Assembly: GCA_018334495.1 (NCBI GenBank)
Contig: JAGXLV010000001.1
Coordinates: 62,001 to 126,000 of the forward strand
Reading direction: 5' to 3'
DNA length: 64,000 nt
Source: Oleiphilaceae bacterium
GTDB lineage: Bacteria > Pseudomonadota > Gammaproteobacteria > Pseudomonadales > Oleiphilaceae
Of the stretch, positions 19,951-33,610 are shown one piece after another. Both the position numbers and the translations under genes were made by a program. The notes beneath the pieces were generated by a model. That model saw only the letters and a list, made by a program, of their open reading frames with translations. It had not been told where the DNA came from and did not search any database. The stretch's first letter is position 1, and every line of letters starts with the position of its first letter.

Positions 19951-22900
19951 TTAATGAAAGTCCCGGGAATCCACCTTCAGGGTCTGAATCAGGTGGCTCA
20001 GGTCCGACAGCTTTCCCGCCATCACGTGAATGATGTCCCCCTCGCGCTCAAGAATGCCTTTCACATGCAGTAATCGGGCGGTGAGCAGCGGTTTACGCTG
20101 TCGCCTTGCCGTGTCCAGCCACACCACCACGTTGATGTTGCCGGTTTCGTCTTCCAGGGTGACAAAAGTCACCCCTGATGCCGTGCCGGGCCTTTGCCGG
20201 CCGGTGACCAGCCCTGCCACCTGCACCGGACGGCCAGGCTCAACATCCAGTAGGGCGTTGGCACTCAGGCAATGTTTCAGGTGCCCCTGTTCCCTGAGCA
20301 AAGCCAGGAGATGGCGTTGCAGGGAAAGCCCCTGGGTGGCGTAATCCTCCATAATAGCCTGGCCTTCGGAGGGTGCGGGTAGCTCGACCCGGCTGGCGTT
20401 GTAATCGTCGTGATCTTCGCTGGCAAACAGTGCCGGCGGTGCCTGATGACCCAGGAGTTGCCAATAGGCCTGACGACGGTTGCCGGTCAGGCCCCCCAGG
20501 GCGTTGGCTCCGGCCAGGGCTTCCAGATCCCGCTGGTTGAGCCCCGGAATACGGCGCAATTCGTTCGCCGACAGATAACCAGCCGCAGGCCGCTGCCGGA
20601 CCAGCTCACAGGCAGGGTCACGGGCGAGCCCGCGGATCAGCCGCAATCCCAGCCGAAGAGCCGGCCCGGGCTTGTCAGGGCTGGCGGGCTCCAGGGTATG
20701 ATCCCAGGCACTGGCGTTTATATCCGCCGGCAGAACCTCGACGCCGTGGCGGCGGGCGTCCTGCACCAGCTGAGAGGGCGAGTAGAAACCCATGGGTTGA
20801 CTGTTCAGCAGACCGCAATAGAATTCGGCAGGGTAATGGCACTTGATCCAGGCCGACACATACACCAGCAGGGCAAAACTGGCGGCGTGGGATTCGGGAA
20901 AACCATAGCCGCCGAAGCCGCAGATCTGCTGATACAGACGTTCGGCAAAATCAGCGCCGTGGCCTCTTTCCAGCATGCCTTTGATCAGCTTGTCACGGAA
21001 GGGCGACATATCACCATGGGACTTCCAGGCCGCCATGGCCCGGCGCAGCTGGTCAGCCTCGCCGGCGCTGAAGCCGGCCGCCACCATGGCCAGCTTGATG
21101 ACCTGTTCCTGGAAGATCGGCACTCCCAGGGTGCGTTCCAGCACACCCCGTATGGCTTCATTGGGATAATTGACCGGCTCCTGGCCGTGCTTGCGTTTGA
21201 GGTAAGGATGCACCATATCGCCCTGGATAGGGCCGGGGCGCACAATGGCGACCTGTACCACCAGATCGTAATAGGTTTCCGGGCGCAGGCGCGGCAACAT
21301 GTTGATCTGGGCCCGGGATTCCACCTGAAAGACCCCGATGCTGTCACCTTTTTGGAGCATGGCGTAGGTGGCAGGGTCTTCCGGGGGAATAGCCTGCATT
21401 GTCATGGGTTGGCCGCGGCGCTGGCCGATCAGGTCCAGGGCCCGGCGAATGGCGGACAACATACCCAGGGCGAGGATGTCCACTTTCATCAGGCCCAGGC
21501 TTTCCAGGTCGGTCTTGTCCCACTGGATAACGGTGCGATCCGCCATGGTGGCGTTCTCCACCGGTACCAGTTCCGCCAGGGGGCCGGCGCTGATCACAAA
21601 GCCTCCGACGTGCTGTGACAGGTGGCGGGGGAATCCCAACAGGGTGTTCACCAGAGTGAAAAACTGCTCAGCAACCCGGGGGTTGCGGGTCAGTCTCTTG
21701 TCCAGTATCTGTTGGCGCCAGTCGTTGTCCCGGTCGCGCCAGTCGATGCCGTTGAGCAGTTGTTCCACCAGTGCCGGATCAAACCCCAGGGCCTTGCCCA
21801 CATCCCGGATGGCGCTGCGGGGCCGGTAACGTATCACGGTTGCCGCCAAAGCCGCGCGCTCCCGTGTGTAACGCCGGTAAATGTACTGCATGACTTCTTC
21901 CCGGCGATCGTGTTCGAAATCCACATCGATGTCGGGCGGTTCGTTCCGGTCTTTGGAGATAAAGCGTTCGAAAAGTAGTTCGACCTTACGTGGGTCCACC
22001 TCGGTAATACCAAGGCAGTAACAGACGGCGGAATTGGCGGCAGAGCCCCGGCCCTGGCAGAGAATCCCCCGCCCGCGGGCAAAACGGACAATGTCTTCCA
22101 GGGTCAGGAAATAATGCTCATAGCCCATCTCGGCGATCAGCCGCAGCTCTTTTCGGATCAGTGCCTGGATGGGCAGAGGCGTGCCGTCGGGAAAGCGGGC
22201 TTTTTCCCCTTCACGGGTCAGTCTCAACAGGTGCTCGCCCGCAGAAATGCCTGTGGGTACCAGATCGGGTGGGTACTCGTAGCGCAGGCTGCCCGGCTCA
22301 AAGCTGCACTGCTCGGCAATACGGCAGCTTTCAGTCAACCAGGCCTCGGGGTAAAGGCGTTTTAGAAATTTTAGCGGTCTGAGGTAGCGTTCGCCGTTCT
22401 GGAATAAATGCAGGCCGGCTTCTTCCAGTGTGCAGCCATGACGAATCGCGGTCAGCACATCCTGCAGTGGTTGGCGGTCGCGGCGATGATTGTGAACATT
22501 GCCGGCGGCGGTCACCGCACACTTGAGATCGGCCGCCAGTTCCCGCAAGTGATAGAGATGCTCCTCCTCCTTATTTTCCAACGCCCGCTCTGCCGCCAGC
22601 CAGAAACGTGAGCCAAATTGCTCCCGCAGCCATTGGCCGCATTCAAGGGCTTCCTCAAAAGGGACCTGATGCAAGGCGGGGGGCGGCCACAGACACAGGC
22701 AATGGCTGAGGGTGTTTTCCTGGACATCGTCCCGGTACAGGCGGTATTCGCCTTTGGGTGCGCGTCGCCGGGCGGTGGTGATGAGCTGGCAGAGCTGGCC
22801 GTAGCCCTGGCGGTCCCGGGCCAGCAACACAATGGCTACAGGCACGCCACCGATATTGACGTCATGCAACTGGAAATGGCTGCCGGTAATCAGCTTGACG

Positions 22901-23073
22901 GGGCTGCCCTTCAGTGTGGCCCAGGCGCGGGGAATGCCGGCGACAGAACAGACATCGGTAATCGCCAACGCCTTGTAGTTCAGCTCACGAGCGCGCTCCG
23001 CCAGTTCCTCCGGATGGGACGCGCCGGTCAGAAAGGTGAAATTGCTGAAGCAGTGGAGTTCCGCGTAAGCCAT
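19951..23073 (-). CDS. dnaE2: Error-prone DNA polymerase DnaE2 (ImuC)
   Basis: Alternative C-family polymerase alpha subunit that performs translesion synthesis within the ImuA-ImuB-DnaE2 mutasome. The 1040 residues are shorter than replicative DnaE, as expected for DnaE2. An N-terminal PHP domain (YAELHCFSNFTFLTGAS) leads to the palm with catalytic Asp residues in PDIDVDF (about 379-385) and GRGSAANSAVCYCLG. A helix-hairpin-helix segment (RRIPGLNQRDLEALAG) and an OB fold follow at the C-terminus. I chose the ATG at 23073 because it gives MAYAELHCFSN, the family N-terminus, with AGGA upstream. It lies 20 bp after the imuB stop. Confidence 0.96.
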   Translation of the reverse strand: MAYAELHCFSNFTFLTGASHPEELAERARELNYKALAITDVCSVAGIPRAWATLKGSPVKLITGSHFQLHDVNIGGVPVAIVLLARDRQGYGQLCQLITTARRRAPKGEYRLYRDDVQENTLSHCLCLWPPPALHQVPFEEALECGQWLREQFGSRFWLAAERALENKEEEHLYHLRELAADLKCAVTAAGNVHNHRRDRQPLQDVLTAIRHGCTLEEAGLHLFQNGERYLRPLKFLKRLYPEAWLTESCRIAEQCSFEPGSLRYEYPPDLVPTGISAGEHLLRLTREGEKARFPDGTPLPIQALIRKELRLIAEMGYEHYFLTLEDIVRFARGRGILCQGRGSAANSAVCYCLGITEVDPRKVELLFERFISKDRNEPPDIDVDFEHDRREEVMQYIYRRYTRERAALAATVIRYRPRSAIRDVGKALGFDPALVEQLLNGIDWRDRDNDWRQQILDKRLTRNPRVAEQFFTLVNTLLGFPRHLSQHVGGFVISAGPLAELVPVENATMADRTVIQWDKTDLESLGLMKVDILALGMLSAIRRALDLIGQRRGQPMTMQAIPPEDPATYAMLQKGDSIGVFQVESRAQINMLPRLRPETYYDLVVQVAIVRPGPIQGDMVHPYLKRKHGQEPVNYPNEAIRGVLERTLGVPIFQEQVIKLAMVAAGFSAGEADQLRRAMAAWKSHGDMSPFRDKLIKGMLERGHGADFAERLYQQICGFGGYGFPESHAASFALLVYVSAWIKCHYPAEFYCGLLNSQPMGFYSPSQLVQDARRHGVEVLPADINASAWDHTLEPASPDKPGPALRLGLRLIRGLARDPACELVRQRPAAGYLSANELRRIPGLNQRDLEALAGANALGGLTGNRRQAYWQLLGHQAPPALFASEDHDDYNASRVELPAPSEGQAIMEDYATQGLSLQRHLLALLREQGHLKHCLSANALLDVEPGRPVQVAGLVTGRQRPGTASGVTFVTLEDETGNINVVVWLDTARRQRKPLLTARLLHVKGILEREGDIIHVMAGKLSDLSHLIQTLKVDSRDFH

Positions 23074-23093
23074 GAACAAAAATTCCTGGAGCC

Positions 23094-24512
23094 TCAGGCA
23101 AAGAGGCCGTGTATGAACCAACCACCACTGACGTCACGAAACACCCAGGCCAGTTGTCCGGAGCCCAGTTGCGCCACGTAATAATCACGTTGTACCCGCT
23201 CACCGTCCCACCAGCCGCCACTGATACGCTCCGGGCCGGTCAGCCAGGCTTGCGGCAGGTGAACAACCGGTTGCGGTGTATTGAGAAGCCAAAGCGGCCG
23301 TGAGGGACCTGAATCCTTCTCGGTAGCTTTGACGGAGGCCGGGCAGCTCAGGCGTCCCCGGGTCCAGGCCCGTTCCGGCCTGTGATCGGCGTGCGGAGCC
23401 AGGATTTTAAGGGCCTGATCACCAAGACGGGCCTGCAGCCGGCTGATCAGAGCCTGCCAGGCTTCGACAGTATTGGTTCCACTGTCCAGCAGGTCGTCTC
23501 CAATAGCTTTGTCGCGATCGATGAAACGGCTGACAGCCAGGGTCATGGCTTCAACGGGTGCGGCCAGTGTTTGCTGCTCCAAACGGAGCCGGATCAGTGC
23601 CAGAAAACTGGTCGCCCGGTGCTCGGGGCCGGCGGTTCTCAACAGTATTCGGGTTTCCTGCCGGCCACGGTGATGCAGGCTGAGTTTCAGGCTGTCAGTA
23701 TCCTGCTGCCGCCATTGCAGGTCCTCTTGCAGTTCGGTCAGGATTCGCTGGAGGGGGAACAGCAGACTTGAGGTCTGTTCTATGTCCCGGGCGAAATCCA
23801 GATGCTGGTGGAAGCGGTGGGGTGGTGACCAGGGCGTTTGTGGATCGGCACGGCTACCCTGTAATTGCTGGATCAGCTTCAGGGTTTCCGGCTCCAGGCG
23901 GCGTGCGGTTTCTTCCGCTGGCAGTTTAAACAGGTCATCCAGGGTAATCAGTCCCAGACGGTCCAGGCGTTCTGTGGTTTTGGCCGGTAATCCCGATTGT
24001 TGAACGGGCAGGGCGCCCAGAAGGGCCTGAAGGGTTTCTTTGGCCTCCGTGCAACGGCCACTGTTGGCTTGGGCCAGTCGCTGGGCTGCCTTTGGCGTCA
24101 GTCCGGTGGCCATCCAGCCGGTGAGCTGGCGCTGTTCCAGCGCCTGGGTCAGGATTTGCCACAGGCCTTCGATGCCGCCGTGAAGCCGGTTCATGCTGCC
24201 GGCTTCAGTCAATAGGCCATGAGGGGGGCACAGGCTGATATGGGCCATGTAACGATAGAGCCAGCGAGCCTGCTGCTCCAGTGCCTGGTGTTCCCGTTCC
24301 GGCTCGGGGCGCACAATGGCCAGCTCCGGTGCCAGGCTGATGGCGGTTTTCAATTGCATGTCCGGATGGATGCCGAGTTCACGGGCTTCCGGGCTGGCCT
24401 GGTAAACCGTCTGCTGACCGGGATCACTGATGACCAGTGCTTCCCGCTTTTCGCGGCTACTGAGGACCTGGTCCAGTAATAATTGCGGGAAATGGATATA
24501 AAGCCAAAGCAT
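23094..24512 (-). CDS. imuB: Mutasome scaffold protein ImuB (inactive Y-family polymerase)
   Basis: Y-family polymerase homologue that in Caulobacter, Pseudomonas and mycobacteria lacks catalytic residues. It acts as a hub linking ImuA, DnaE2 and the beta clamp. The 472-residue protein starts MLWLYIHFPQLLLDQ, where an active enzyme would carry a D-x-D/E metal-binding motif I, so polymerase activity is not expected. The helix-hairpin-helix region (ERLDRLGLITLDDLFKLPAE) is intact. Its start overlaps the imuA stop by one base pair (ATGA), so the three genes form one coupled operon under the LexA box at 25226. Confidence 0.94.
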   Translation of the reverse strand: MLWLYIHFPQLLLDQVLSSREKREALVISDPGQQTVYQASPEARELGIHPDMQLKTAISLAPELAIVRPEPEREHQALEQQARWLYRYMAHISLCPPHGLLTEAGSMNRLHGGIEGLWQILTQALEQRQLTGWMATGLTPKAAQRLAQANSGRCTEAKETLQALLGALPVQQSGLPAKTTERLDRLGLITLDDLFKLPAEETARRLEPETLKLIQQLQGSRADPQTPWSPPHRFHQHLDFARDIEQTSSLLFPLQRILTELQEDLQWRQQDTDSLKLSLHHRGRQETRILLRTAGPEHRATSFLALIRLRLEQQTLAAPVEAMTLAVSRFIDRDKAIGDDLLDSGTNTVEAWQALISRLQARLGDQALKILAPHADHRPERAWTRGRLSCPASVKATEKDSGPSRPLWLLNTPQPVVHLPQAWLTGPERISGGWWDGERVQRDYYVAQLGSGQLAWVFRDVSGGWFIHGLFA

Positions 24513-25207
24513 CAGCTACCACCCGCTTCCGACCAGGGACCGTGAACCACGCGGGGAACGTTTTTTGAAGCGACTGGAGTGTTGCGTTCGGGCAGCGCCA
24601 AAGTGCAAGTGTCGGCGGCCCAGCCCCCGCGACGCTTAAGCACCTCAACCTGTAATGTTCCATGGCTTTGCGGTGTCAGTTGCAGGCGCAAAGCCGCCGG
24701 CGAGCTTTCAGTGGCGGCCCTTACCGGCCGGAAAAGCACACAGAGGCTGCCGCCGGTCTCTGCGGCCAGTTGTAGCCGCCGAATCTGTCGTTGCTTCAGT
24801 GTCCCTGGCCAGGCCAGCACCAGACCGGTCACCGATGAGCGCAGGCAGTTTTCCAGGGACCAGAGGGCATCGGTCTGGTCTTCGGTCTGGATAACCACCA
24901 CCCGGGACAAGTCAAGGCCTTCCCGCTGAAGCGCTGGAGCATAGGGCGTATGGGGCGGGTTTATCCAGAACAGGGTCTTGCCGGCTGCTATCTGGCGTCG
25001 CATCAGGGGCAGCAGTAGCTGAAGTTCGCCAATGCCGGGGGTTTCAAGCAAGCATTCAGTCAGGGCGCCGCGGGGCCAGCCGGTGCCTTTTAATTGCTGG
25101 TCCAGGGCTTCAAAGCCAGTGGGTTCTGCCGCCTGGGCGATTTGCACATGCTCTTTGGCCTGCCACACCCGGGCATCTTGAATCAGGGTGTCGAGAAGTT
25201 CTTTCAT
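24512..25207 (-). CDS. imuA: ImuA, RecA-like SOS mutagenesis protein
   Basis: First gene of the imuA-imuB-dnaE2 cassette. The 231-residue protein is a RecA-fold relative (TGFEALDQQLKGTGWPRGAL, then ETPGIGELQLLLPL) whose P-loop is degenerate, as in many ImuA proteins. ImuA is required with ImuB for damage-induced mutagenesis in bacteria that lack UmuDC, and it interacts with RecA and ImuB. The ATG at 25207 lies 18 bp downstream of a perfect LexA operator. Expression after DNA damage is therefore expected. Confidence 0.92.
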   Translation of the reverse strand: MKELLDTLIQDARVWQAKEHVQIAQAAEPTGFEALDQQLKGTGWPRGALTECLLETPGIGELQLLLPLMRRQIAAGKTLFWINPPHTPYAPALQREGLDLSRVVVIQTEDQTDALWSLENCLRSSVTGLVLAWPGTLKQRQIRRLQLAAETGGSLCVLFRPVRAATESSPAALRLQLTPQSHGTLQVEVLKRRGGWAADTCTLALPERNTPVASKNVPRVVHGPWSEAGGS

Positions 25208-25363: not shown

Positions 25364-25720
25364 ATGAGCAATCTTAAAGACCTACCCTGTGAGCCCTGCT
25401 CGAAAGACACGCCACCCCTGCTGCCGCATCAGCAAAAAGAACTGCTGGACAGGCTAGCGGGTTGGCAGATAGTCGAGTACGGCGGCGAAAAACAACTGGA
25501 GCGGACCATCAAGCTGAAGAATTTTGCCGATGCCTTGGGCCTTACCAATCGGATAGGGGCGCTGGCCGAAGCAGAGGGTCATCACCCGGCTATTCTCCTG
25601 GAGTACGGCAAGGTCAGGGTCAATTGGTGGACCCACGCCATTGGCGGGCTTCACCAGAATGATTTCATTATGGCGGCCCGGACAAATCAGATTGCCAGCG
25701 AATTTGGTGGCAATCGGTAA
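25364..25720 (+). CDS. phhB: Pterin-4a-carbinolamine dehydratase
   Basis: Dehydrates 4a-hydroxytetrahydrobiopterin, recycling the cofactor of phenylalanine hydroxylase; the family also doubles as a transcriptional coactivator (DCoH). The 118 residues carry the family pattern E-x-x-x-H-H-P with EAEGHHPAILLEYGKVRVNW, then the downstream TH and D of THAIGGLHQND. A ribosome site AAAGGAGG lies 10 bp before the ATG. phhA is not next to it, so it appears to be a single-gene unit. It diverges from imuA. Confidence 0.95.
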   Translation: MSNLKDLPCEPCSKDTPPLLPHQQKELLDRLAGWQIVEYGGEKQLERTIKLKNFADALGLTNRIGALAEAEGHHPAILLEYGKVRVNWWTHAIGGLHQNDFIMAARTNQIASEFGGNR

Positions 25721-25901: not shown

Positions 25902-26771
25902 ATGTCTTATTTTACGATCGCCGGGGTGCAGATGCATGCCCTGCACCACGGTGACAATGTTGAAACCATGCGTCACCGTATTGACCTCCTTATGTCGCGC
26001 TTCCCCCAGGTGCAGATGGTGTTATTCAGCGAGCTGGTCGTCACGGGGGCCTCAACCCACCATGCCGAGCCTTTGCCCAGCAATAAGGAAAACCTGTTTT
26101 GTGAAATTGCCCAACATCACGGTATCTGGTTGATTCCCGGCTCTATGTTTGAACGGGTCGATGACAAAATCTACAACACCACGAGCGTAATTAACCCGCA
26201 AGGCCATGTGGTCTGCCGTTATCGTAAAATGTTTCCGTTCCGGCCCTATGAAGAGGGTGTGGAAGCTGGTACTGAGTTTGTGGTTTTTGACGTACCGGAC
26301 ATCGGTCGTTTCGGCGTTTCCATCTGCTATGACATGTGGTTCCCAGAAACAACCCGCACACTGGCCGCCATGGGGGCCGAGGTCATACTCCACCCCACTA
26401 TGACCGATACCATCGACCGGGATATCGAACTTTCGATCGCACGCACCAACGCCGCAATCAATCAGTGTTTCTTTTTTGATTTCAACGGTGCCGGTGCCAT
26501 GGGCAATGGCCGTTCAATCGTGGTGGGCCCGTCCGGAGACGTTATCCATCAGTCGGGTATCGGCGACGAGATTGTACCGATAGAAATTGATCTCCAGAGA
26601 GTTCGTCGGGAGCGAGAGCGGGGCCTTCGGGGTCTGGGGCAGCCACTGAAAAGCTTCCGCGACCGCGACGTCGATTTCACGCTTTATCAAGATGGAAACA
26701 AATCGAGTCCTTTTCTTGACAGCCTGGGACCCCTGGGCAAACCGGTCAGGGATGACGTCATCCAGCATTAA
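25902..26771 (+). CDS. Carbon-nitrogen hydrolase (nitrilase superfamily)
   Basis: Cytoplasmic amidohydrolase of 289 residues. The nitrilase-superfamily triad is visible: Glu in VLFSELVVTG (about residue 47), Lys in CRYRKMFPF (about 109) and Cys in GVSICYDMWFPE (about 147). Relatives hydrolyse amides, nitriles or carbamoyl amines such as N-carbamoylputrescine; the substrate here cannot be read from the sequence. AGAGGA precedes the ATG. The gene starts a co-directional set with an ATP-grasp ligase, a C45 Ntn hydrolase and an amino acid decarboxylase. That context suggests it trims or deamidates an amine conjugate made by its neighbours (inference). Confidence 0.88.
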   Translation: MSYFTIAGVQMHALHHGDNVETMRHRIDLLMSRFPQVQMVLFSELVVTGASTHHAEPLPSNKENLFCEIAQHHGIWLIPGSMFERVDDKIYNTTSVINPQGHVVCRYRKMFPFRPYEEGVEAGTEFVVFDVPDIGRFGVSICYDMWFPETTRTLAAMGAEVILHPTMTDTIDRDIELSIARTNAAINQCFFFDFNGAGAMGNGRSIVVGPSGDVIHQSGIGDEIVPIEIDLQRVRRERERGLRGLGQPLKSFRDRDVDFTLYQDGNKSSPFLDSLGPLGKPVRDDVIQH

Positions 26772-26991
26772 CCTTAACTTGAAGGTGGCCTGATCCGGCG
26801 CCGACAAGGTGGAGAAAAGCGTGATTCGTGATTTGCTGAATCTACTGCGTCAACGTGTTGCCGACTGGCTGTCGCCGGAGGCGGAAAACCGGCCGGCGTC
26901 AACTGCGCCGGGATTTGAGGCCGAGCGGGACAAGCGGGAAAGTTATGCTGGATTCCGGCAGGGCAGTTCCAATAATAAAGGAGTGACAGGA

Positions 26992-28458
26992 ATGGCTACA
27001 ATAAAAAGTATTTCCGATATTCGCCGTTATTTTCACAACAACAAGGAGCCGGTGTATTTTATATCGGCAACCAACTTTAATCTGTTGGGCATTGGTGACT
27101 GGGTCGGCAACTTCCGCCATATCAACTATATAAACTGTTTTGAAGGCAAGCAGAAAAACGTCTTTGTCCCCAAAGAGAAGTTTCCCCGCGATTTCGAAAG
27201 CATCGAAGACATCAATAATTATCTCCTGGAGCACAAGGAAGTCATCGACTACCTGCAGTCCCGTGGTGGCAAGGGCACTGCAGCCTTTCTGATGTTCGAT
27301 GAGCGCACGGAAGAGATCTGTGAGCAGTTGGGCCTCAAGATTGCCTTCCCGCCCGCCAAATTACGTTCTCGCATGGACAACAAAATCGAGACTGTCCGGA
27401 TTGGCAACAAGGTCGGTGTGCCGAGCGTACCCAATGTCCTGGCAAAGGTTAATAATTACGAGCACCTTGTCGAAGTCTGTGAACCCCTGGGCACCAACGA
27501 TCTGGTCATTCAGTCGGCCTATGGCGATTCCGGCCATACCACTTATTTCGTTTCCAACGAAGATGAATACTATAAATACGCCGAAGAGATCGAGGCGGAA
27601 CCTGAAGTCAAGATCATGAAGCGTATCAATTGTCGGGGTTCCGCCATCGAGGCCTGTACCACCCGCTGCGGTACTGTCGTGGGCCCTCTGATGACAGAGT
27701 TGGTGGGGTTCAAAGCGCTGACACCTTATAAGGGCGGTTGGTGCGGTAACGAAATGTTTGCCGGCGCTTTCTCTCAGGAAGTTCGCGACAAGGCCCGCGA
27801 GTATACGTTCCAGTATGGTGAAGCCCTGCGTGAAGAGGGTTACCGGGGTTATTTCGAACTCGACTTCCTGATCGATCAGGACACCAACGAAGTCTATCTG
27901 GGCGAGCTTAATCCCCGGGTGACCGGCGCCAGTTCCCTGACTAACGTGGCGGCGTTCGCCCACTCGGATGTGCCTCTGTTTCTGTTCCATCTGCTTGAGT
28001 TCTCCGGCGAGGACTTCGATGTCGATATCGAAGAACTGAACGAGCGCTGGTCTCATCCGGACAGTATTGACAGCTGGAGCCAGCTTGTCATCAAGCACAC
28101 GGATGAGTCGGTGGATTTGCTGACTGAAGCACCGCAATCCGGTGTCTGGAGAATGGCTGCCGACAGCAGTATCAGCTATGACCACTACAGCTACCACCCC
28201 CATGCCGCAGAAAGCGAGCAGGAAGCTTTCTTCATGCGCATCAGTGGCGTTGGTGATTTCCGGTACGAAGGCGCCGATCTGGGCATCCTGATTACCCGGG
28301 GGCGCCTGATGGACGACAATTTCCAGCTCACACCCAGAGCCAAGGCCTGGATTGATGGAGTTCGCGGTCAGTTCAAAGGCCAGGCTTTGCAGGATCCAGT
28401 CGTTGAAGCGGTGGCGGTCGAGCACGCCATTGGCGGCGGCAACTTCAAGATTCTGTGA
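26992..28458 (+). CDS. ATP-grasp ligase (biotin carboxylase-like)
   Basis: ATP-grasp enzyme of 488 residues from the ATG at 26992. Such enzymes join a carboxylate to an amine through an acyl-phosphate. ATP-grasp features visible: VIQSAYGDSGHTTYFVS (P-loop-like glycine stretch), a Lys in VKIMKRINCRG, and the Mg-ligand pair in GYFELDFLID and YLGELNPRVTGAS. No biotin carboxyl-carrier domain is present, so a ligase is likelier than a carboxylase. Start choice: ATG 26992 has AAAGGAG eight bases upstream. A GTG at 26821 with AAGGTGGAG would add 57 residues that look unstructured and may be leader. It lies between the nitrilase-like gene and the C45 gene in the same direction. Confidence 0.82.
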   Translation: MATIKSISDIRRYFHNNKEPVYFISATNFNLLGIGDWVGNFRHINYINCFEGKQKNVFVPKEKFPRDFESIEDINNYLLEHKEVIDYLQSRGGKGTAAFLMFDERTEEICEQLGLKIAFPPAKLRSRMDNKIETVRIGNKVGVPSVPNVLAKVNNYEHLVEVCEPLGTNDLVIQSAYGDSGHTTYFVSNEDEYYKYAEEIEAEPEVKIMKRINCRGSAIEACTTRCGTVVGPLMTELVGFKALTPYKGGWCGNEMFAGAFSQEVRDKAREYTFQYGEALREEGYRGYFELDFLIDQDTNEVYLGELNPRVTGASSLTNVAAFAHSDVPLFLFHLLEFSGEDFDVDIEELNERWSHPDSIDSWSQLVIKHTDESVDLLTEAPQSGVWRMAADSSISYDHYSYHPHAAESEQEAFFMRISGVGDFRYEGADLGILITRGRLMDDNFQLTPRAKAWIDGVRGQFKGQALQDPVVEAVAVEHAIGGGNFKIL

Positions 28459-28522
28459 TAATTTTGCGACTGTGGCTGACGCCTTCGTCGATCCCTTTTT
28501 CGGGGCTGGCGGGGCTAAAGGC

Positions 28523-29527
28523 ATGACAAGGCAGAAACGTCTGGTTTTTCGTACTGTGCACGAACCTGAGCCGGGACCAAAATGGCAGAGTCTTTTCGAT
28601 CTGCACTGGCCGGCTTTCGAGCGCTGGTATCTGTCTGAAACCGAACGCGAGCGTCCCAGCTATCTGGCTTGCTTCAACTCTCTCAGTGAGCACATGCCGG
28701 AGTTGGTGCCCACCTATAAAAAGCTCTGCGAGTTGGCCGGGGGCGGTGATCTTTCGTCGCGCATGCTTAGCTTGTACCGCCCACCTCCCTACATTACAGG
28801 TTGTTCGCAAGCGGTGATGGCCAATGGCCAGAGCAACGTTCTGGTGCGAAATTACGATTATCCGCCGGAGTTGTGCGAGGGCACCATACTGTCGACCTGC
28901 TGGAACGATCGACGGGTTATCGCCATGTCGGACTGTTTGTGGGGCGTGCTTGATGGCATGAACGACCGCGGCCTGACTGTGTCGCTTGCCTTCGGTGGGC
29001 GAAAAACCGTGGGCGACGGTTTTGGTGCGCCGATAATACTGCGCTATATCCTTGAGTTTTGTGATACCACGGATGAGGCTGCAGAGGTGTTGGCGAGGGT
29101 GCCTACTCACATGGCCTATAATATAACCGTAACCGATGCCCTGGGCCGTTATGTTACCGCCATGATCGGACCGGATCGGCGAGCGTCCATCAAGCGGACT
29201 CCGATGGCGACCAATCATCAGAAAAAAATTGAGTGGTATGCCCATGCCCTGGCATCAGAAACCCTGATACGGGAACGCCAGCTGGCTATACTGCTGGAGG
29301 ACGACGCAACCACGGAGGAGCGCCTGATATCAGCCTTTTTTTCGCCCCCGCTGTTTCGTAGCGATTACCGGCGTGGCCTGGGCACTATTTACACGGGGGT
29401 TTATTATCCTGTGGAAAGGCGAGCGCAATATCATTGGTCAAACTATTCAGTGGAGGTGTCGTTCGAGCAATTTGAGGAAAAGACGATAGACATTCGCTAC
29501 ACCAGCCATCCCGACGCTATGGGATAA
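28523..29527 (+). CDS. C45-family Ntn hydrolase / acyltransferase-like protein
   Basis: The 334-residue protein resembles the C45 (acyl-CoA:6-aminopenicillanate acyltransferase-like) Ntn-hydrolase superfamily. Members self-cleave before a Cys that becomes the N-terminal nucleophile, then hydrolyse or transfer acyl-amide bonds. The expected cleavage point is Gly-Cys in PYITGCSQAVMANG (Cys near residue 95), followed by the family stretch NVLVRNYDYPPEL and later AFGGRKTVGDGFG. The predicted fragments are about 10 and 27 kDa. The ATG at 28523 has AAGG upstream and lies 64 bp after the ATP-grasp stop. Substrate unknown; the context suggests an amide made by the neighbouring ligase. Confidence 0.8.
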   Translation: MTRQKRLVFRTVHEPEPGPKWQSLFDLHWPAFERWYLSETERERPSYLACFNSLSEHMPELVPTYKKLCELAGGGDLSSRMLSLYRPPPYITGCSQAVMANGQSNVLVRNYDYPPELCEGTILSTCWNDRRVIAMSDCLWGVLDGMNDRGLTVSLAFGGRKTVGDGFGAPIILRYILEFCDTTDEAAEVLARVPTHMAYNITVTDALGRYVTAMIGPDRRASIKRTPMATNHQKKIEWYAHALASETLIRERQLAILLEDDATTEERLISAFFSPPLFRSDYRRGLGTIYTGVYYPVERRAQYHWSNYSVEVSFEQFEEKTIDIRYTSHPDAMG

Positions 29528-29765
29528 CTGCTGGCCAAGCACGACGCACTATTTTGTGAGTAGCAAAACAAAAACAGGGAGCCTCTGAAAAGTACTGATG
29601 GGGATGACGTGTCAGGCGATTGAGCGCAGAAAATTAAGAGGGCCTGGTGATCAGAAGTAGGGTCGGGTTTGTGTTCGAAGTTTCGTGATACGACGCAGTT
29701 CACCGAAAAAACTTTTCCAGAAGCTCCGCATCATCCTTATATAAAGCCGGTTTAGAGGTTTCGCT
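29528..29765 (+). promoter_or_regulatory. Intergenic region upstream of the decarboxylase
   Basis: This 238-bp gap separates the C45 gene from the decarboxylase, long enough for a separate promoter. TATATAAAG at 29738-29746 is a possible -10 element. AGAGG precedes the next ATG. I see no strong terminator. Confidence 0.3.
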
Positions 29766-32564
29766 ATGGCAGTTAAAATCACGGGTGACACAACAGAATC
29801 AGAAGCGTCCTACAGTGCTCTGGGTTTTTATCATAAGATTTCCCAGCTGCGAGCGGATACCTGGAATGCCTTAAAGCGCGAACTGGGGCGACTGGCGAAG
29901 ACCCAGGATGAGACAGAAAAGCGTCATCTGGTTAAATCGGTGGATGTGAAGTTAACCCGTCTGGAAATTATCGAGGATTATCACGCCTTTCCCTCCCAGG
30001 AAGATTTCCGCCACGTTTGGGCCCTGTTCCGCAACGGCGAATATGTCTCCCTGGAAAAGGTAATCAAACGCCTGGTGCGGACCCTGATCAGCGAATCCTA
30101 TCGCCGCCGGCAGGTCGATCTCAGTGACAGCGATTCTGAGTCGGAGGACCTGGAGGCACTCGACGCGCTGGCGCAACTCCGCCGTGGCCACCCCACCTCC
30201 AACAGTTCATCGCAACCTTATTTCGAACTCTTGATTGTCGATGCCATGTCACGGCAGGAAGAAGAGGTTGTGCGTGAAGCTTTCCACAGCCTGCGCCGGC
30301 CGGAGGATAAATTTGTCTATGACGTCGTGACGGTTCGAAGCTTTGAAGATGCGCTTATCGCTATCCTGGTCAATCCCAATATTCAGGCTTGCCTGATCCG
30401 GTATGAGTTTCCTTATAAATCCAAATACAACCTCAGTGCCTTGCGCAATTATCTTGAGGGGCTTTCCGAAATCGAGATGGGCCACAAGAGCGAAGCGGAG
30501 CGAAGCCTTCTGCTGGGCTCAATGATTCGCGAGATCCGGCCCGAGATTGACCAGTTTCTGGTCACCAGCGGGGATGTGGAAGTGACCGCCAGTCGGGACA
30601 TTCGTCACTTCAACCGCATTTTCTATCGGGAAACCGATTACATTGAGCAGCACCACACCATTTTAAGGGCCATCGACAACCGTTACCGCACCCCGTTCTT
30701 CGATGCTTTGCGGGAATACAGCCGTAAACCCACCGGTGTTTTCCATGCCATGCCCATCTCCCGGGGCAAATCCGTGACCCGTTCCCACTGGGCCGGGCAG
30801 ATGATCGATTTCTATGGCATCAATATCTTTCTTGCCGAAACCTCGGCGACGTCAGGTGGCCTGGACTCGCTTCTGCAGCCATACGGCCCCATCAAGAAAG
30901 CTCAGGAATACGCCGCCAGGGCATTCGGTTCCCGCCAGAGCTACTTTGTGACCAATGGCACCTCGACGGCCAACAAGATCGTGGTGCAAGCATTGATCAA
31001 ACCTGGCGATATTGTGTTGGTTGACCGCGACTGCCATAAATCCCATCACTACGGCATGGTTTTGTCAGGGGCTCATGTGGTTTACCTGGATTCCTACCCC
31101 CTCAACGATTATTCCATGTACGGCGCGGTCCCCCTGCGGGAGATAAAAAAATCCCTGCTTGCCCTCAAGCGAACCGGACAGCTCGACAAGGTCAAGATGC
31201 TGTTGCTAACCAACTGCACGTTTGATGGTGTGGTTTATAACGTCCGCCGTGTAATGGAAGAGTGCCTGGCCATCAAACCGGATCTGGTCTTCCTCTGGGA
31301 TGAAGCCTGGTTTGCATTTGCCACATTCAATCCCACCTACAGGCCGAGGACAGCGATGCACGCTGCCCGTACCCTGCGCGACCGTCATTACAGCGAAGCT
31401 TACAGAAAAGAGTACGCCGAATGGCGCGCCGACTTTGACAAACTTGACCCGGATGATGACGCCACCTGGCTGGACAACCGGTTGCTTCCAGATCCCGAAA
31501 TTTCCCGTATCCGGGCTTATGCGACCCATTCCACCCACAAGACCCTGACGTCATTGCGCCAGGGCTCGATGATCCATGTGTATGATCAGGAATATCGCCA
31601 GAAGGTCGAAGCAAGCTTCCACGAAGCCTATATGACCCACACCTCCACTTCGCCCAACTACCAGATTCTGGCGTCGCTGGATGTGGGGCGCATGCAGGCG
31701 GAAATGGAAGGCTTCGAGTTGGTCCATGCCCAGGTCGAAACGGCCCTGTCACTGCGTGAGCAGCTTTACACCAACCCCCTGTTGCAGAAGTATTTCCAGG
31801 TGCTGGTCAACAAGGACATGATTCCCCTCAAATACCGTCAGTCCGGCGTGGATACGTTTTACGATCCGGTCAGTGGCTGGAACAAGATGGAGGAGGCCTG
31901 GGCTCATGATGAATTCGTGGTCGATCCCAGCCGTATTACCATGGCAATTGGTAAAACCGGTATTGATGGCGACACCTTCAAGAACGAATACCTGATGAAT
32001 CAATACGGTATCCAGATCAACAAGACCTCCCGTAATACCGTTCTGTTCATGACCAATATCGGCACCAGCCGTGGCTCCATTGCGTATCTGCTTGATGTGT
32101 TGATCAAGCTGGCCAAAGATTTCGACCGCCGCTGGGACGAGAGCAGCCGGCCTGAACGCAAGATTATCGAGCATCACGTCAAGTCGCTGACTGAAGACCT
32201 GCCGCCGTTACCGGATTTCAGTCGCTTTCATGATGCTTTCCGTCCCCGCAAGGATTCGGCGCAGGGGGACATTCGCCGCGCCTATTTCCTGAGTTACGAC
32301 GAGGAACACACGGAATACCTGCGCTTCGACAACGAAGCTCTGCAGAAAGTGATGGCTCAGGGCCGCGATGTGGTGTCGGCCAGCTTTGTGATCCCTTACC
32401 CGCCGGGCTTTCCGGTGTTGGTGCCGGGCCAGGTCGTCAGCGATGAAATCATCGATTTCCTGCAGGCCCTGGATGTTACTGAAATCCACGGCTATCGCCC
32501 TGAACTCGGTTTGTTGGTCTTTAACGAAGAAGCCCTGTTGGCGACGCATAAGCTGCGGGAGTAG
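29766..32564 (+). CDS. Orn/Lys/Arg-type PLP decarboxylase, long form
   Basis: Fold-type I PLP-dependent amino acid decarboxylase that should make a diamine or agmatine. At 932 residues it is longer than E. coli AdiA, LdcC or SpeC (about 710-755) and nearer the size of the mycobacterial Rv2531c type. The first 300 residues or so include a charged start and a response-regulator-like wing domain. The PLP core runs from about 335: SATSGGLDSLLQPYG, YFVTNGTSTANKIV, DRDCHKSHHYG, LFLWDEAWFAF, and the Schiff-base Lys in ATHSTHKTLTSLRQGSMIH (near residue 600). A C-terminal domain follows. Which amino acid it uses cannot be told from the sequence. AGAGG precedes the ATG. Confidence 0.88.
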   Translation: MAVKITGDTTESEASYSALGFYHKISQLRADTWNALKRELGRLAKTQDETEKRHLVKSVDVKLTRLEIIEDYHAFPSQEDFRHVWALFRNGEYVSLEKVIKRLVRTLISESYRRRQVDLSDSDSESEDLEALDALAQLRRGHPTSNSSSQPYFELLIVDAMSRQEEEVVREAFHSLRRPEDKFVYDVVTVRSFEDALIAILVNPNIQACLIRYEFPYKSKYNLSALRNYLEGLSEIEMGHKSEAERSLLLGSMIREIRPEIDQFLVTSGDVEVTASRDIRHFNRIFYRETDYIEQHHTILRAIDNRYRTPFFDALREYSRKPTGVFHAMPISRGKSVTRSHWAGQMIDFYGINIFLAETSATSGGLDSLLQPYGPIKKAQEYAARAFGSRQSYFVTNGTSTANKIVVQALIKPGDIVLVDRDCHKSHHYGMVLSGAHVVYLDSYPLNDYSMYGAVPLREIKKSLLALKRTGQLDKVKMLLLTNCTFDGVVYNVRRVMEECLAIKPDLVFLWDEAWFAFATFNPTYRPRTAMHAARTLRDRHYSEAYRKEYAEWRADFDKLDPDDDATWLDNRLLPDPEISRIRAYATHSTHKTLTSLRQGSMIHVYDQEYRQKVEASFHEAYMTHTSTSPNYQILASLDVGRMQAEMEGFELVHAQVETALSLREQLYTNPLLQKYFQVLVNKDMIPLKYRQSGVDTFYDPVSGWNKMEEAWAHDEFVVDPSRITMAIGKTGIDGDTFKNEYLMNQYGIQINKTSRNTVLFMTNIGTSRGSIAYLLDVLIKLAKDFDRRWDESSRPERKIIEHHVKSLTEDLPPLPDFSRFHDAFRPRKDSAQGDIRRAYFLSYDEEHTEYLRFDNEALQKVMAQGRDVVSASFVIPYPPGFPVLVPGQVVSDEIIDFLQALDVTEIHGYRPELGLLVFNEEALLATHKLRE

Positions 32565-32755
32565 CGGCGCGGACTGTGTAATCAACATGCCCGGAGGCCC
32601 CGGCCGAGGTGTCCGGGCGTCGTATCGGTTATTAACATGGGGTATCATGCTGGTCTTTCAGGCATGCCCGAATCTTGCGGTCTGGCCAGTGATAGCCGGT
32701 CAGACAAAAGCAAATAGAGGGCGGGCCTTTATCTGCATAAGAGAGCGAAGTCTTA

Positions 32756-33610
32756 ATGGAGCACACATACCGTCTGGTTATTTCCTGTCCCGACCGGGTG
32801 GGTATCGTCGCAAAAGTCAGTAATTTCCTGGCCACTTATAATGGTTGGATTACCGAAGCCAGCCATCATGCTGATAACCAGGCCGGCTGGTTTTTTATGC
32901 GCCACGAACTCAAGGCCAGCTCCATTCCTTTTGGACTTGATCAATTCCGTGCGGCGTTTGAGCCCATTGCCCGTGAATTCGACATGCAGTGGCATGTGGC
33001 CGATTCGGCCCAGCCCAAGCGTGTGGTTCTGATGTGCAGCAAAGAGTCCCATTGCCTGGTCGATCTTTTGCATCGGTGGCACAGCAAAGAGCTCAATGTG
33101 GAGGTCGCCGCGGTCGTATCAAACCATGACGATCTGCGGCGCATGGTTGACTGGCATGACATTCCCTACCATCACGTGCCGGTGTCACGGGACAACCGTC
33201 AGGAGGCCTTTGCCGAGATCAGCCGGCTGATGGAGCATTACCAGACCGATGTCATCGTGCTGGCCCGCTACATGCAGATACTCCCTCCCGAGCTCTGCAA
33301 GCGTTATACCGGCCGTATTATCAATATCCATCACAGTTTTCTGCCGTCGTTCGCCGGTGCAAAACCCTACCACCAGGCTTACAGTCGCGGCGTTAAACTG
33401 ATTGGCGCCACTTGCCACTATGTGACCGAAGATCTGGACGAAGGCCCGATTATCGAACAGGACGTCATCCGTGTGAATCACAGCGATGCCATTGAAGATA
33501 TGGTCCGGCTGGGCAAGGACGTGGAGAAAAATGTCCTGGCACGCGGGCTGCGGGCGCATGTGGAAGACCGGGTCATTACCCACGAAAACAAAACCGTGGT
33601 CTTCGGTTGA
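32756..33610 (+). CDS. purU: Formyltetrahydrofolate deformylase
   Basis: Hydrolyses 10-formyl-THF to formate and THF, balancing one-carbon pools. Its 284 residues equal the usual PurU length. An N-terminal ACT domain (about 5-85, starting YRLVISCPDRVGIVAKVS) is followed by a formyltransferase-fold catalytic domain with INIHHSFLPSF and GATCHYVTEDLDEGPII, which supply the Asn, His and Asp catalytic residues. It is 191 bp downstream of the decarboxylase in the same direction. There is no sign that the two act together, although released formate and free THF could matter to the same cell state. Confidence 0.96.
   Translation: MEHTYRLVISCPDRVGIVAKVSNFLATYNGWITEASHHADNQAGWFFMRHELKASSIPFGLDQFRAAFEPIAREFDMQWHVADSAQPKRVVLMCSKESHCLVDLLHRWHSKELNVEVAAVVSNHDDLRRMVDWHDIPYHHVPVSRDNRQEAFAEISRLMEHYQTDVIVLARYMQILPPELCKRYTGRIINIHHSFLPSFAGAKPYHQAYSRGVKLIGATCHYVTEDLDEGPIIEQDVIRVNHSDAIEDMVRLGKDVEKNVLARGLRAHVEDRVITHENKTVVFG

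What the first reader, a model, noticed from the sequence alone, without database searches (positions are those of the whole stretch)
25902..33610. Candidate amine-conjugate pathway: amidohydrolase, ATP-grasp ligase, C45 Ntn hydrolase and long decarboxylase
Four enzymes in one direction, with gaps of 64 to 238 bp, could build an amide-linked amine. The decarboxylase would make a diamine or agmatine, the ATP-grasp enzyme would ligate a carboxylate to it, the C45 protein would transfer or cleave an acyl-amide, and the nitrilase-type enzyme would hydrolyse an amide or carbamoyl group. Seen: motifs and order. Known: reaction classes of these families. Inferred: one shared pathway. I do not know a described pathway with this exact set.
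Basis: partly seen in the sequence, partly recalled or inferred. Interest (0 to 1): 0.8.

Follow-up and report, generated by a model that had tools for sequence, protein, structure and literature searches.

The report
Conserved four-gene GABA-linked enzyme cassette
Four neighbouring genes that travel together through many bacteria encode an unstudied enzyme set that probably makes or handles the small amino acid GABA, and its decarboxylase looks retuned away from the basic amino acids it is usually annotated for.

Summary
The four genes are real, intact and one unit. In the 80 closest loci picked by the ATP-grasp gene (mostly halomonads), C45 is present in 80, the decarboxylase in 79, the nitrilase-type gene in 75; in 36 more diverse loci, 13 of them among the 80, in 35, 32 and 24. 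In one draw of 398 genomes all 11 with the ATP-grasp gene have the decarboxylase beside it. The stated end is too far: 32756-33610 is purU. In a sister species phhB and purU are adjacent and the cassette lies elsewhere.

The diamine/agmatine reading is doubtful. The decarboxylase belongs with M. tuberculosis Rv2531c (activity unknown). A Glu kept by three solved Arg/Lys decarboxylases is Asn in 103 of 103 sequences. A sister clade sits beside AspT-type antiporters. A GABA transaminase gene is near in 12 of the 36 loci, SpeB in 5; in 59 of 62 halomonad loci the cassette lies within ectoine-degradation genes. Best reading: a glutamate decarboxylase makes GABA; ligase, Ntn hydrolase and amidase form and cleave a GABA-type amide. 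Nothing is assayed.

The parts
25902..26771 (+). Carbon-nitrogen hydrolase (nitrilase superfamily), 289 aa; predicted amidase
   Evidence: PF00795 112.7 bits; E44, K109, C142 in 95 of 95 sequences; absent from L094, L096, L098, where an amidase-signature gene lies instead
26809..28458 (+). ATP-grasp enzyme, 549 aa from GTG 26809; conserved domain from ATG 26992; labelled biotin carboxylase by NCBIfam PRK06524
   Evidence: 745 bits over cut-off 684; predicted model is biotin-carboxylase-like, Z 19-21
28523..29527 (+). C45 N-terminal-nucleophile hydrolase/acyltransferase, 334 aa
   Evidence: NF040521 174 bits, cut-off 85; model matches isopenicillin N acyltransferase 2x1c Z 28.6
28802..28804 (+). 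codon of catalytic Cys94 (Gly-Cys-Ser-Gln)
   Evidence: Cys in 106 of 106 sequences
29766..32564 (+). Long Orn/Lys/Arg-fold PLP decarboxylase, 932 aa; predicted acidic amino-acid (glutamate) decarboxylase
   Evidence: PF01276; closest solved chain is 9n0n/9n0o, 832 bits; residue and context evidence
31539..31541 (+). codon of PLP-binding Lys592 (Ser-Thr-His-Lys)
   Evidence: Lys in 103 of 103
30762..30764 (+). codon of Arg333, in the loop that is PGHxGG in solved basic-amino-acid decarboxylases
   Evidence: Arg in 103 of 103; alignment
32019..32021 (+). codon of Asn752, aligned with a Glu in solved Arg and Lys decarboxylases
   Evidence: Asn in 103 of 103; alignment
25364..25720 (+). phhB-like gene: left flank, not part of the cassette
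   Evidence: In G006 the phhB and purU matches lie about 70 bp apart with no cassette between (L190); name recalled from sequence, not scanned
32756..33610 (+). purU, formyltetrahydrofolate deformylase: right flank, not part of the cassette
   Evidence: TIGR00655 372 bits over cut-off 286

Best explanation
A mobile four-enzyme cassette centred on GABA. Step 1 (inferred): the long decarboxylase, of the Orn/Lys/Arg fold but with a changed substrate pocket, removes the alpha-carboxylate of an acidic amino acid, most likely glutamate, giving GABA. Step 2 (inferred): the ATP-grasp enzyme activates a carboxylate, most likely that of GABA, and joins it to an unknown amine. Step 3 (inferred): the C45 Ntn enzyme cleaves or transfers that amide, and the nitrilase-type enzyme (or an amidase-signature enzyme that seems to replace it in 3 loci) hydrolyses a simple amide, releasing GABA. 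Where present, GabT and GabD, or DoeD and DoeC in halomonads, would burn the product to a TCA-cycle acid. Shown: the linkage, intact catalytic residues, the changed pocket residues and the GABA/AspT contexts. Not shown: any substrate or product.
For: Linkage: 80/80, 79/80, 75/80, 35/36, 32/36, 24/36 in the diverse set; 11 of 11 ATP-grasp genomes hold the decarboxylase, which occurs in 17 of 398 (hypergeometric 1e-17, not corrected for kinship). GABA context: GABA transaminase gene in 12 of 36 loci, 11 of them full-length and above TIGR00700's cut-off; SSADH above cut-off in L097 and L099; SpeB in 5 of 36, in L020 and L158 inside a 2-ketoarginine operon like that of L019, a route that would end in GABA. 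Pocket: Asn752, Arg333, Arg756 in 103 of 103 against Glu, Gly and Leu or Pro in the solved Arg and Lys decarboxylases. Sister clade (support 1.0) next to AspT-family antiporters in 10 of 10 loci, twice with AspD (L127; L180). An amidase-signature gene in place of the nitrilase in 3 loci.
Against: No activity is known for the decarboxylase family and none was found for the cassette. GabT is absent near 24 of 36 loci, near all 4 named Marinobacter loci and all 62 halomonad loci. SpeB could equally be agmatinase, which would fit arginine. Arg756 is Ile in Rv2531c. The role of the Glu that became Asn752 is recalled; a paper search for it found nothing. An AspT partner would also suit aspartate, and some of these AspT pass the Asp/Ala cut-off. 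ATP-grasp and C45 occur without the decarboxylase nearby at L014, L019, L020, L158 and L159, and ATP-grasp without either at L157, so they may act on something else. The nitrilase is missing from 12 of 36 loci. A free-glutamate decarboxylase does not by itself explain why a ligase is needed.
Confidence: 0.38

Rival explanations
1. Basic-amine pathway, close to the first reader's: arginine or ornithine is decarboxylated to agmatine or putrescine, the ATP-grasp enzyme conjugates the amine, C45 and the amidase release GABA, as a Puu-like route with other enzymes.
For: SpeB-family genes near 5 of 36 loci; the 3 scanned (L154, L155, L019) pass the TIGR01230 agmatinase cut-off; PuuR-like regulator gene near 6 of 36 loci, though the one scanned has 158.8 bits, below its cut-off of 211; best NCBIfam model of the nitrilase is N-carbamoylputrescine amidase, 76 bits, cut-off 410; GabT near 12 of 36.
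Against: Glu to Asn752 and PGHxGG to Pro-x-x-Arg-Gly in the family; AspT partners in the sister clade; no amine oxidase among the four genes.
Confidence: 0.2
2. Aspartate version: the decarboxylase makes beta-alanine, the ATP-grasp enzyme makes beta-alanyl amides, C45 cleaves them (as insect Tan does) and the nitrilase acts like beta-ureidopropionase.
For: AspT antiporters, one above the Asp/Ala equivalog cut-off right beside a decarboxylase of the sister clade (L180, 700.7 of 547), another in L126 (641.7); aspartate is the end product of the ectoine route that surrounds the halomonad cassettes (route as given in PMC5320631, passages). Tan and beta-ureidopropionase family memberships are recalled.
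Against: GabT, GabD and 2-ketoarginine contexts point to a C4 amino acid; the AspT beside the decarboxylase in L181, L182, L184, L185 is a divergent paralogue, 371-379 bits, below cut-off.
Confidence: 0.15
3. Adjunct of ectoine/hydroxyectoine breakdown: the enzymes process 2,4-diaminobutyrate or an acyl derivative.
For: DoeA upstream and DoeC downstream of the cassette in 59 of 62 halomonad loci; a sister-clade decarboxylase lies in the ectoine cluster of Phyllobacterium.
Against: No DoeA match at E 1e-80 in 41 of 41 genomes of the window's genus; no DoeA at 45% identity or more in the 4 Marinobacter and 14 other loci.
Confidence: 0.1
4. Conjugate decarboxylation: the ATP-grasp enzyme first makes a gamma-glutamyl amide, the decarboxylase acts on that conjugate, and C45 releases GABA, a logic like butirosin's BtrJ/BtrK.
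For: A pocket that has lost its acidic residue; decarboxylase and ATP-grasp genes overlap or abut in several loci outside the halomonads. BtrK acting on a glutamate residue is mentioned in PMC8503589 (passages); BtrJ is recalled.
Against: The sister clade keeps the same pocket residues and has AspT antiporters but no ligase nearby, which suits a free amino acid.
Confidence: 0.1

Closest known systems
Rv2531c-type long amino acid decarboxylase (PDB 9n0n, 9n0o)
   Same: Whole-length match, 832 bits over residues 17-926; Arg333 and Asn752 shared
   Different: Rv2531c has Ile at the Arg756 position. Its activity was not clarified (PMC12910592, passages)
AdiA / LdcI / SpeF, biodegradative Arg, Lys and Orn decarboxylases
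   Same: PLP fold, STHK lysine, (D/E)-A-W and C-terminal YPPG segments
   Different: Far below the NCBIfam cut-offs; pocket Glu is Asn; PGHxGG lost
Biotin carboxylase (NCBIfam PRK06524 label)
   Same: Predicted model aligns over about residues 13-466, Z 19-21
   Different: Positions of E. coli BC Gln294 and Glu296 (recalled) are Thr312 and Ala314; no biotin carrier or carboxyltransferase among the four genes
Isopenicillin N acyltransferase (C45/AAT, 2x1c)
   Same: Fold Z 28.6 over 305 residues, Gly-Cys cleavage site
   Different: 12% identity; substrate unknown
E. coli Puu pathway (gamma-glutamylputrescine route; recalled)
   Same: Ligase plus amide hydrolase, with a PuuR-like regulator, GabT and GabD in some loci
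   Different: Ligase and hydrolase are unrelated families; no PuuB oxidase among the four genes; a decarboxylase instead
AspD-AspT aspartate/alanine antiport system
   Same: Sister-clade decarboxylases sit beside AspT, twice with AspD
   Different: No AspT was seen in the 36 cassette loci

Membership tests
Orn/Lys/Arg decarboxylase fold family (PF01276) | Profile match and PLP lysine | tested here: met
   268.2 bits, cut-off 27; Lys592 103 of 103
Arg, Lys or Orn decarboxylase (AdiA, LdcI/LdcC, SpeF) | Score above the NCBIfam cut-off of the equivalog or subfamily | tested here: not met
   220.2 of 968, 198 of 1167, 194.4 of 1056, 188.9 of 794, 177.1 of 1310 bits
Arg, Lys or Orn decarboxylase (AdiA, LdcI/LdcC, SpeF) | Glu of the VEKTG/VEKSG segment, seen in three solved enzymes | tested here: not met
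   Asn752 in 103 of 103 sequences, alignment; role of the Glu recalled
Arg, Lys or Orn decarboxylase (AdiA, LdcI/LdcC, SpeF) | Activity on a basic amino acid | not testable with these tools
   Needs an enzyme assay
Rv2531c-type long decarboxylase | Full-length sequence match | tested here: met
   831.9 bits, 17-926 of 932
Biotin carboxylase | Biotin-carboxylase fold | tested here: met
   Model pLDDT 82.4; the 50 entries shown are all biotin-dependent carboxylases, Z 19.4-21.1, rmsd 3.9-6.2
Biotin carboxylase | Gln294/Glu296 of the catalytic loop (recalled) and a biotin carrier partner | tested here: not met
   Thr (99 of 109) and Ala (104 of 109) at these positions (read off by motif, not by superposition); no carrier gene among the four
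C45 autoproteolytic acyltransferase/hydrolase | Profile match and nucleophile Cys after Gly | tested here: met
   174 bits, cut-off 85; Cys94 106 of 106, Gly93 104 of 106; Z 28.6 to 2x1c
Nitrilase superfamily | Profile match and Glu-Lys-Cys triad | tested here: met
   112.7 bits, cut-off 23.2; triad 95 of 95
N-carbamoylputrescine amidase (AguB) | Score above the equivalog cut-off | tested here: not met
   76.1 of 410.25 bits
Puu pathway | PuuA-type ligase, PuuB oxidase, PuuD-type hydrolase (recalled) | tested here: not met
   The four cassette proteins match other families; a genome-wide search for Puu genes was not done
Ectoine catabolism cluster | DoeA/DoeB present wherever the cassette is | tested here: not met
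   59 of 62 halomonad loci have DoeA; 0 of 41 genomes of the window's genus at E 1e-80

The most novel reading that the evidence does not exclude
An undescribed GABA-amide pathway: an Orn/Lys/Arg-fold enzyme that has become a glutamate decarboxylase supplies GABA; a biotin-carboxylase-shaped ATP-grasp enzyme works as a carboxylate-amine ligase on it; and a C45 Ntn enzyme plus an amidase turn the conjugate over. The same pocket change would explain the orphan Rv2531c family and would define a second, AspT-coupled amino-acid antiport system in soil and symbiotic bacteria.
Probability: 0.3. Interest if true: 0.78.

Novelty: new variant of a known kind. Interest (0 to 1): 0.6.

Why it matters
If the acidic-substrate reading is right, this decarboxylase family, including an M. 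tuberculosis enzyme with a solved structure and no known activity, carries the wrong substrate class on its label. It would also add a GABA-forming route to marine, halophilic and rhizobial bacteria. One assay with Glu, Asp and Gln against Arg, Orn and Lys would decide this.

Tried and rejected
Biotin carboxylase as function: rejected on loop residues and lack of partners; the fold match alone does not decide it. No other ATP-grasp family appears in the 50 rows, which does not exclude them.

purU as a fifth member: rejected, it accompanies gyrA without the cassette.

Arginine route replacing the decarboxylase in Shinella-type loci: first thought so, then dropped for Roseateles XES5, whose plasmid carries the decarboxylase elsewhere; for the other such loci I did not search the rest of the genome.

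Ectoine-specific function: rejected for the family as a whole.

Gene fusion in L104: looked like one, but the decarboxylase and ATP-grasp parts are in different frames.

Extra GabT in cassette-bearing Marinobacter: more than one match in 3 of 5 cassette genomes against 5 of 36 others, 4 of which were not searched for the cassette (counted by eye); too weak to use.

Variant loci L157 and L159 (ATP-grasp with other neighbours) gave no pathway.

ATP-grasp matches not followed up: of the genomes with a match, I did not read G622 and G708 (partial matches) nor G844, G878, G902, G923 and G928.

Literature: searches. Passages were seen in PMC12910592, PMC10385936, PMC13327599, PMC5320631, PMC8503589, PMC6297170, PMC7866039 and PMC2922099; the rest are listings. 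No paper on this cassette was found. The library lacks most subscription journals. The cryo-EM paper on Rv2531c and a 2009 survey of ATP-grasp amidoligase neighbourhoods, recalled by its DOI, are not held, so an earlier prediction of this neighbourhood cannot be excluded.
Full report
Observation. The four genes lie where stated and match the named families. The finding's end coordinate includes purU (32756-33610), which is not one of the four. Order and spacing: nitrilase-type 25902-26771, ATP-grasp 26809-28458 (the conserved part begins at ATG 26992), C45 28523-29527, decarboxylase 29766-32564. Catalytic residues are intact and conserved: nitrilase triad 95 of 95, C45 Cys94 106 of 106, PLP Lys592 103 of 103; the window is one of the sequences in each count.

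One unit. These 80 are close relatives: 62 halomonads, 4 Marinobacter, 14 others. C45 is present in 80, the decarboxylase in 79 and the nitrilase in 75. The one locus without decarboxylase is a cut contig (L043). Of the five without nitrilase, two end shortly upstream of the genes (L101, L104) and three (L094, L096, L098) carry an amidase-signature gene. Gene order is nitrilase-ATP-grasp-C45-decarboxylase in 66; in the other complete ones the decarboxylase precedes ATP-grasp and C45, with the nitrilase before, after or opposite.

A more diverse set of 36 loci (L013, L017, L018, L020, L091-L099, L101-L104, L116-L122, L151-L162; 13 of them among the 80, and L102 and L153 the same region) gives C45 in 35, decarboxylase in 32 and nitrilase in 24 (several contigs are cut). 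Lacking the decarboxylase nearby: L020, L157, L158, L159; lacking C45: L157. In an even draw of 398 genomes of the phylum, 11 have the ATP-grasp gene (E 1e-30) and 17 the decarboxylase (E 1e-80); all 11 are among the 17, with both genes within about 1.4 kb on one contig by their listed positions. The chance figure is 1e-17, uncorrected for kinship. Pairwise distances of the four proteins correlate at 0.83-0.92 over 31 loci, which shared descent alone could give.

Mobility. Of the 37 genomes of the genus, 5 have a full-length ATP-grasp match (the window's own, G006, G025, G027, G034). In G006 the phhB and purU matches are about 70 bp apart with no cassette (L190), while its cassette is on another contig. 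M. caseinilyticus (L026) shares the window's site. The cassette therefore moves, or is lost, as a block.

Halomonad context. In 59 of 62 halomonad loci DoeA lies upstream and DoeC downstream of the cassette. In L034, DoeA, DoeB and EhuR pass their NCBIfam cut-offs; DoeX, DoeC and DoeD are named from position and from weaker or broader matches. The cassette thus sits within the ectoine catabolic genes described in PMC5320631 (passages). Yet no DoeA match was found in 41 of 41 genomes of the window's genus, so ectoine is not the general substrate.

GABA context. Of the 36 loci, a GabT homologue is nearby in 12 (L013, L091, L092, L095, L097, L098, L099, L103, L118, L152, L161, L162). Eleven pass the GABA transaminase cut-off of TIGR00700; L118 is cut by the locus end. 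SSADH passes its cut-offs in L097 and L099. SpeB is near in 5 (L020, L154, L155, L156, L158); in L020, L158 and the annotated L014 and L019 the ATP-grasp and C45 genes lie inside an operon with 2-ketoarginine decarboxylase, aldehyde dehydrogenase, SpeB and D-amino acid dehydrogenase, a route that, from known chemistry, ends in GABA and urea. TAXI/TRAP transporter genes are near in 8 and a PuuR-like regulator in 6 of the 36. No GabT is near in the other 24, nor, at 45% identity or more, in 62 halomonad and 4 Marinobacter loci.

The decarboxylase. Its closest solved relative is Rv2531c (832 bits), whose activity a 2026 review calls unclarified (PMC12910592, passages). Against three solved Arg or Lys decarboxylases, the Glu of VEKTG/VEKSG is Asn752, and the PGHxGG loop is Pro-x-x-Arg-Gly with Arg333. 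Asn752, Arg333, Arg756 and Asn757 are invariant in 103 of 103 sequences and 47 of 47 in a second, overlapping set. Rv2531c keeps Arg333 and Asn752 but not Arg756. That the Glu contacts the far end of a basic substrate is recalled, not tested (one search found no paper). In a Vibrio lysine decarboxylase, E387A and E391A cut activity to about 15% (PMC6297170, passages); if its numbering is that of LdcI, the window has Ala at the first position and Glu at the second.

Sister clade. Twelve loci with the decarboxylase but none of the other three genes were read: six of the 39 plasmid records and the six extra genomes. Ten have one or two AspT-family antiporters beside it and form one clade with support 1.0; the two without (L123, L128) fall in the cassette clade. 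L180 reads decarboxylase-AspT-AspD-AspT; L127 has AspT and AspD. In L181, L182, L184 and L185 the adjacent AspT is divergent (371-379 bits, cut-off 547), while in L180 it passes the cut-off. AspT exchanges an acidic for a neutral amino acid (established for aspartate/alanine), which argues for an acidic substrate; Glu to GABA fits the cassette's GABA contexts best, Asp to beta-alanine is the main alternative.

ATP-grasp and C45. The ATP-grasp model (pLDDT 82.4) matches biotin-dependent carboxylases only in the 50 rows shown (Z 19.4-21.1), but the loop ELNPR-V/I-T-G-A lacks the residues recalled for bicarbonate activation and no biotin carrier is among the four genes. A carboxylate-amine ligase is the better guess. 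The C45 model (pLDDT 91.5) matches isopenicillin N acyltransferase at Z 28.1-28.6, more than four above the next family. Its substrate is open.

Judgement. Shown: a conserved, mobile four-enzyme unit with intact active sites, a changed decarboxylase pocket and GABA or AspT neighbours. Inferred: glutamate decarboxylation, GABA as the acid joined by the ligase, and amide turnover by C45 and the amidase. Likelihoods, by judgement: substrate not basic 0.65; GABA is the node 0.6; ATP-grasp enzyme is an amide ligase 0.75; GABA is its acid 0.35.

Noticed in passing
L180-L185 and L124-L127: Relatives of the decarboxylase without the cassette lie beside one or two AspT-type antiporters, in L127 also near aspD and an annotated HdeA/HdeB chaperone gene: a possible second acid-resistance system.
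   Followed up: partly
L159 9899-12451: A divergent ATP-grasp/C45 pair stands near one citrate synthase gene (scanned, PF00285) and a second that looks like one, with no decarboxylase.
   Followed up: partly
L157 9902-11434: A divergent ATP-grasp gene without C45 or decarboxylase nearby, close to a DoeD-like aminotransferase and a Rieske oxygenase.
   Followed up: partly
L015, L016: Rhizobial plasmid copies look decayed: decarboxylase or C45 split over two frames or cut short, insertion-sequence genes beside L015.
   Followed up: no
L092, L094, L096, L098, L161, L162: A small conserved protein (c34, about 135-177 aa) recurs near the cassette; the three copies scanned (L092, L098, L161) have no Pfam match.
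   Followed up: partly
L019 13788-15575: A 595-aa 'alanine racemase' in the arginine operon: only its first 350 or so residues match the ornithine racemase model.
   Followed up: no
window 19951-25207, minus strand: Three genes that look like the DnaE2-ImuB-ImuA mutagenic repair set (named from sequence, not scanned).
   Followed up: no
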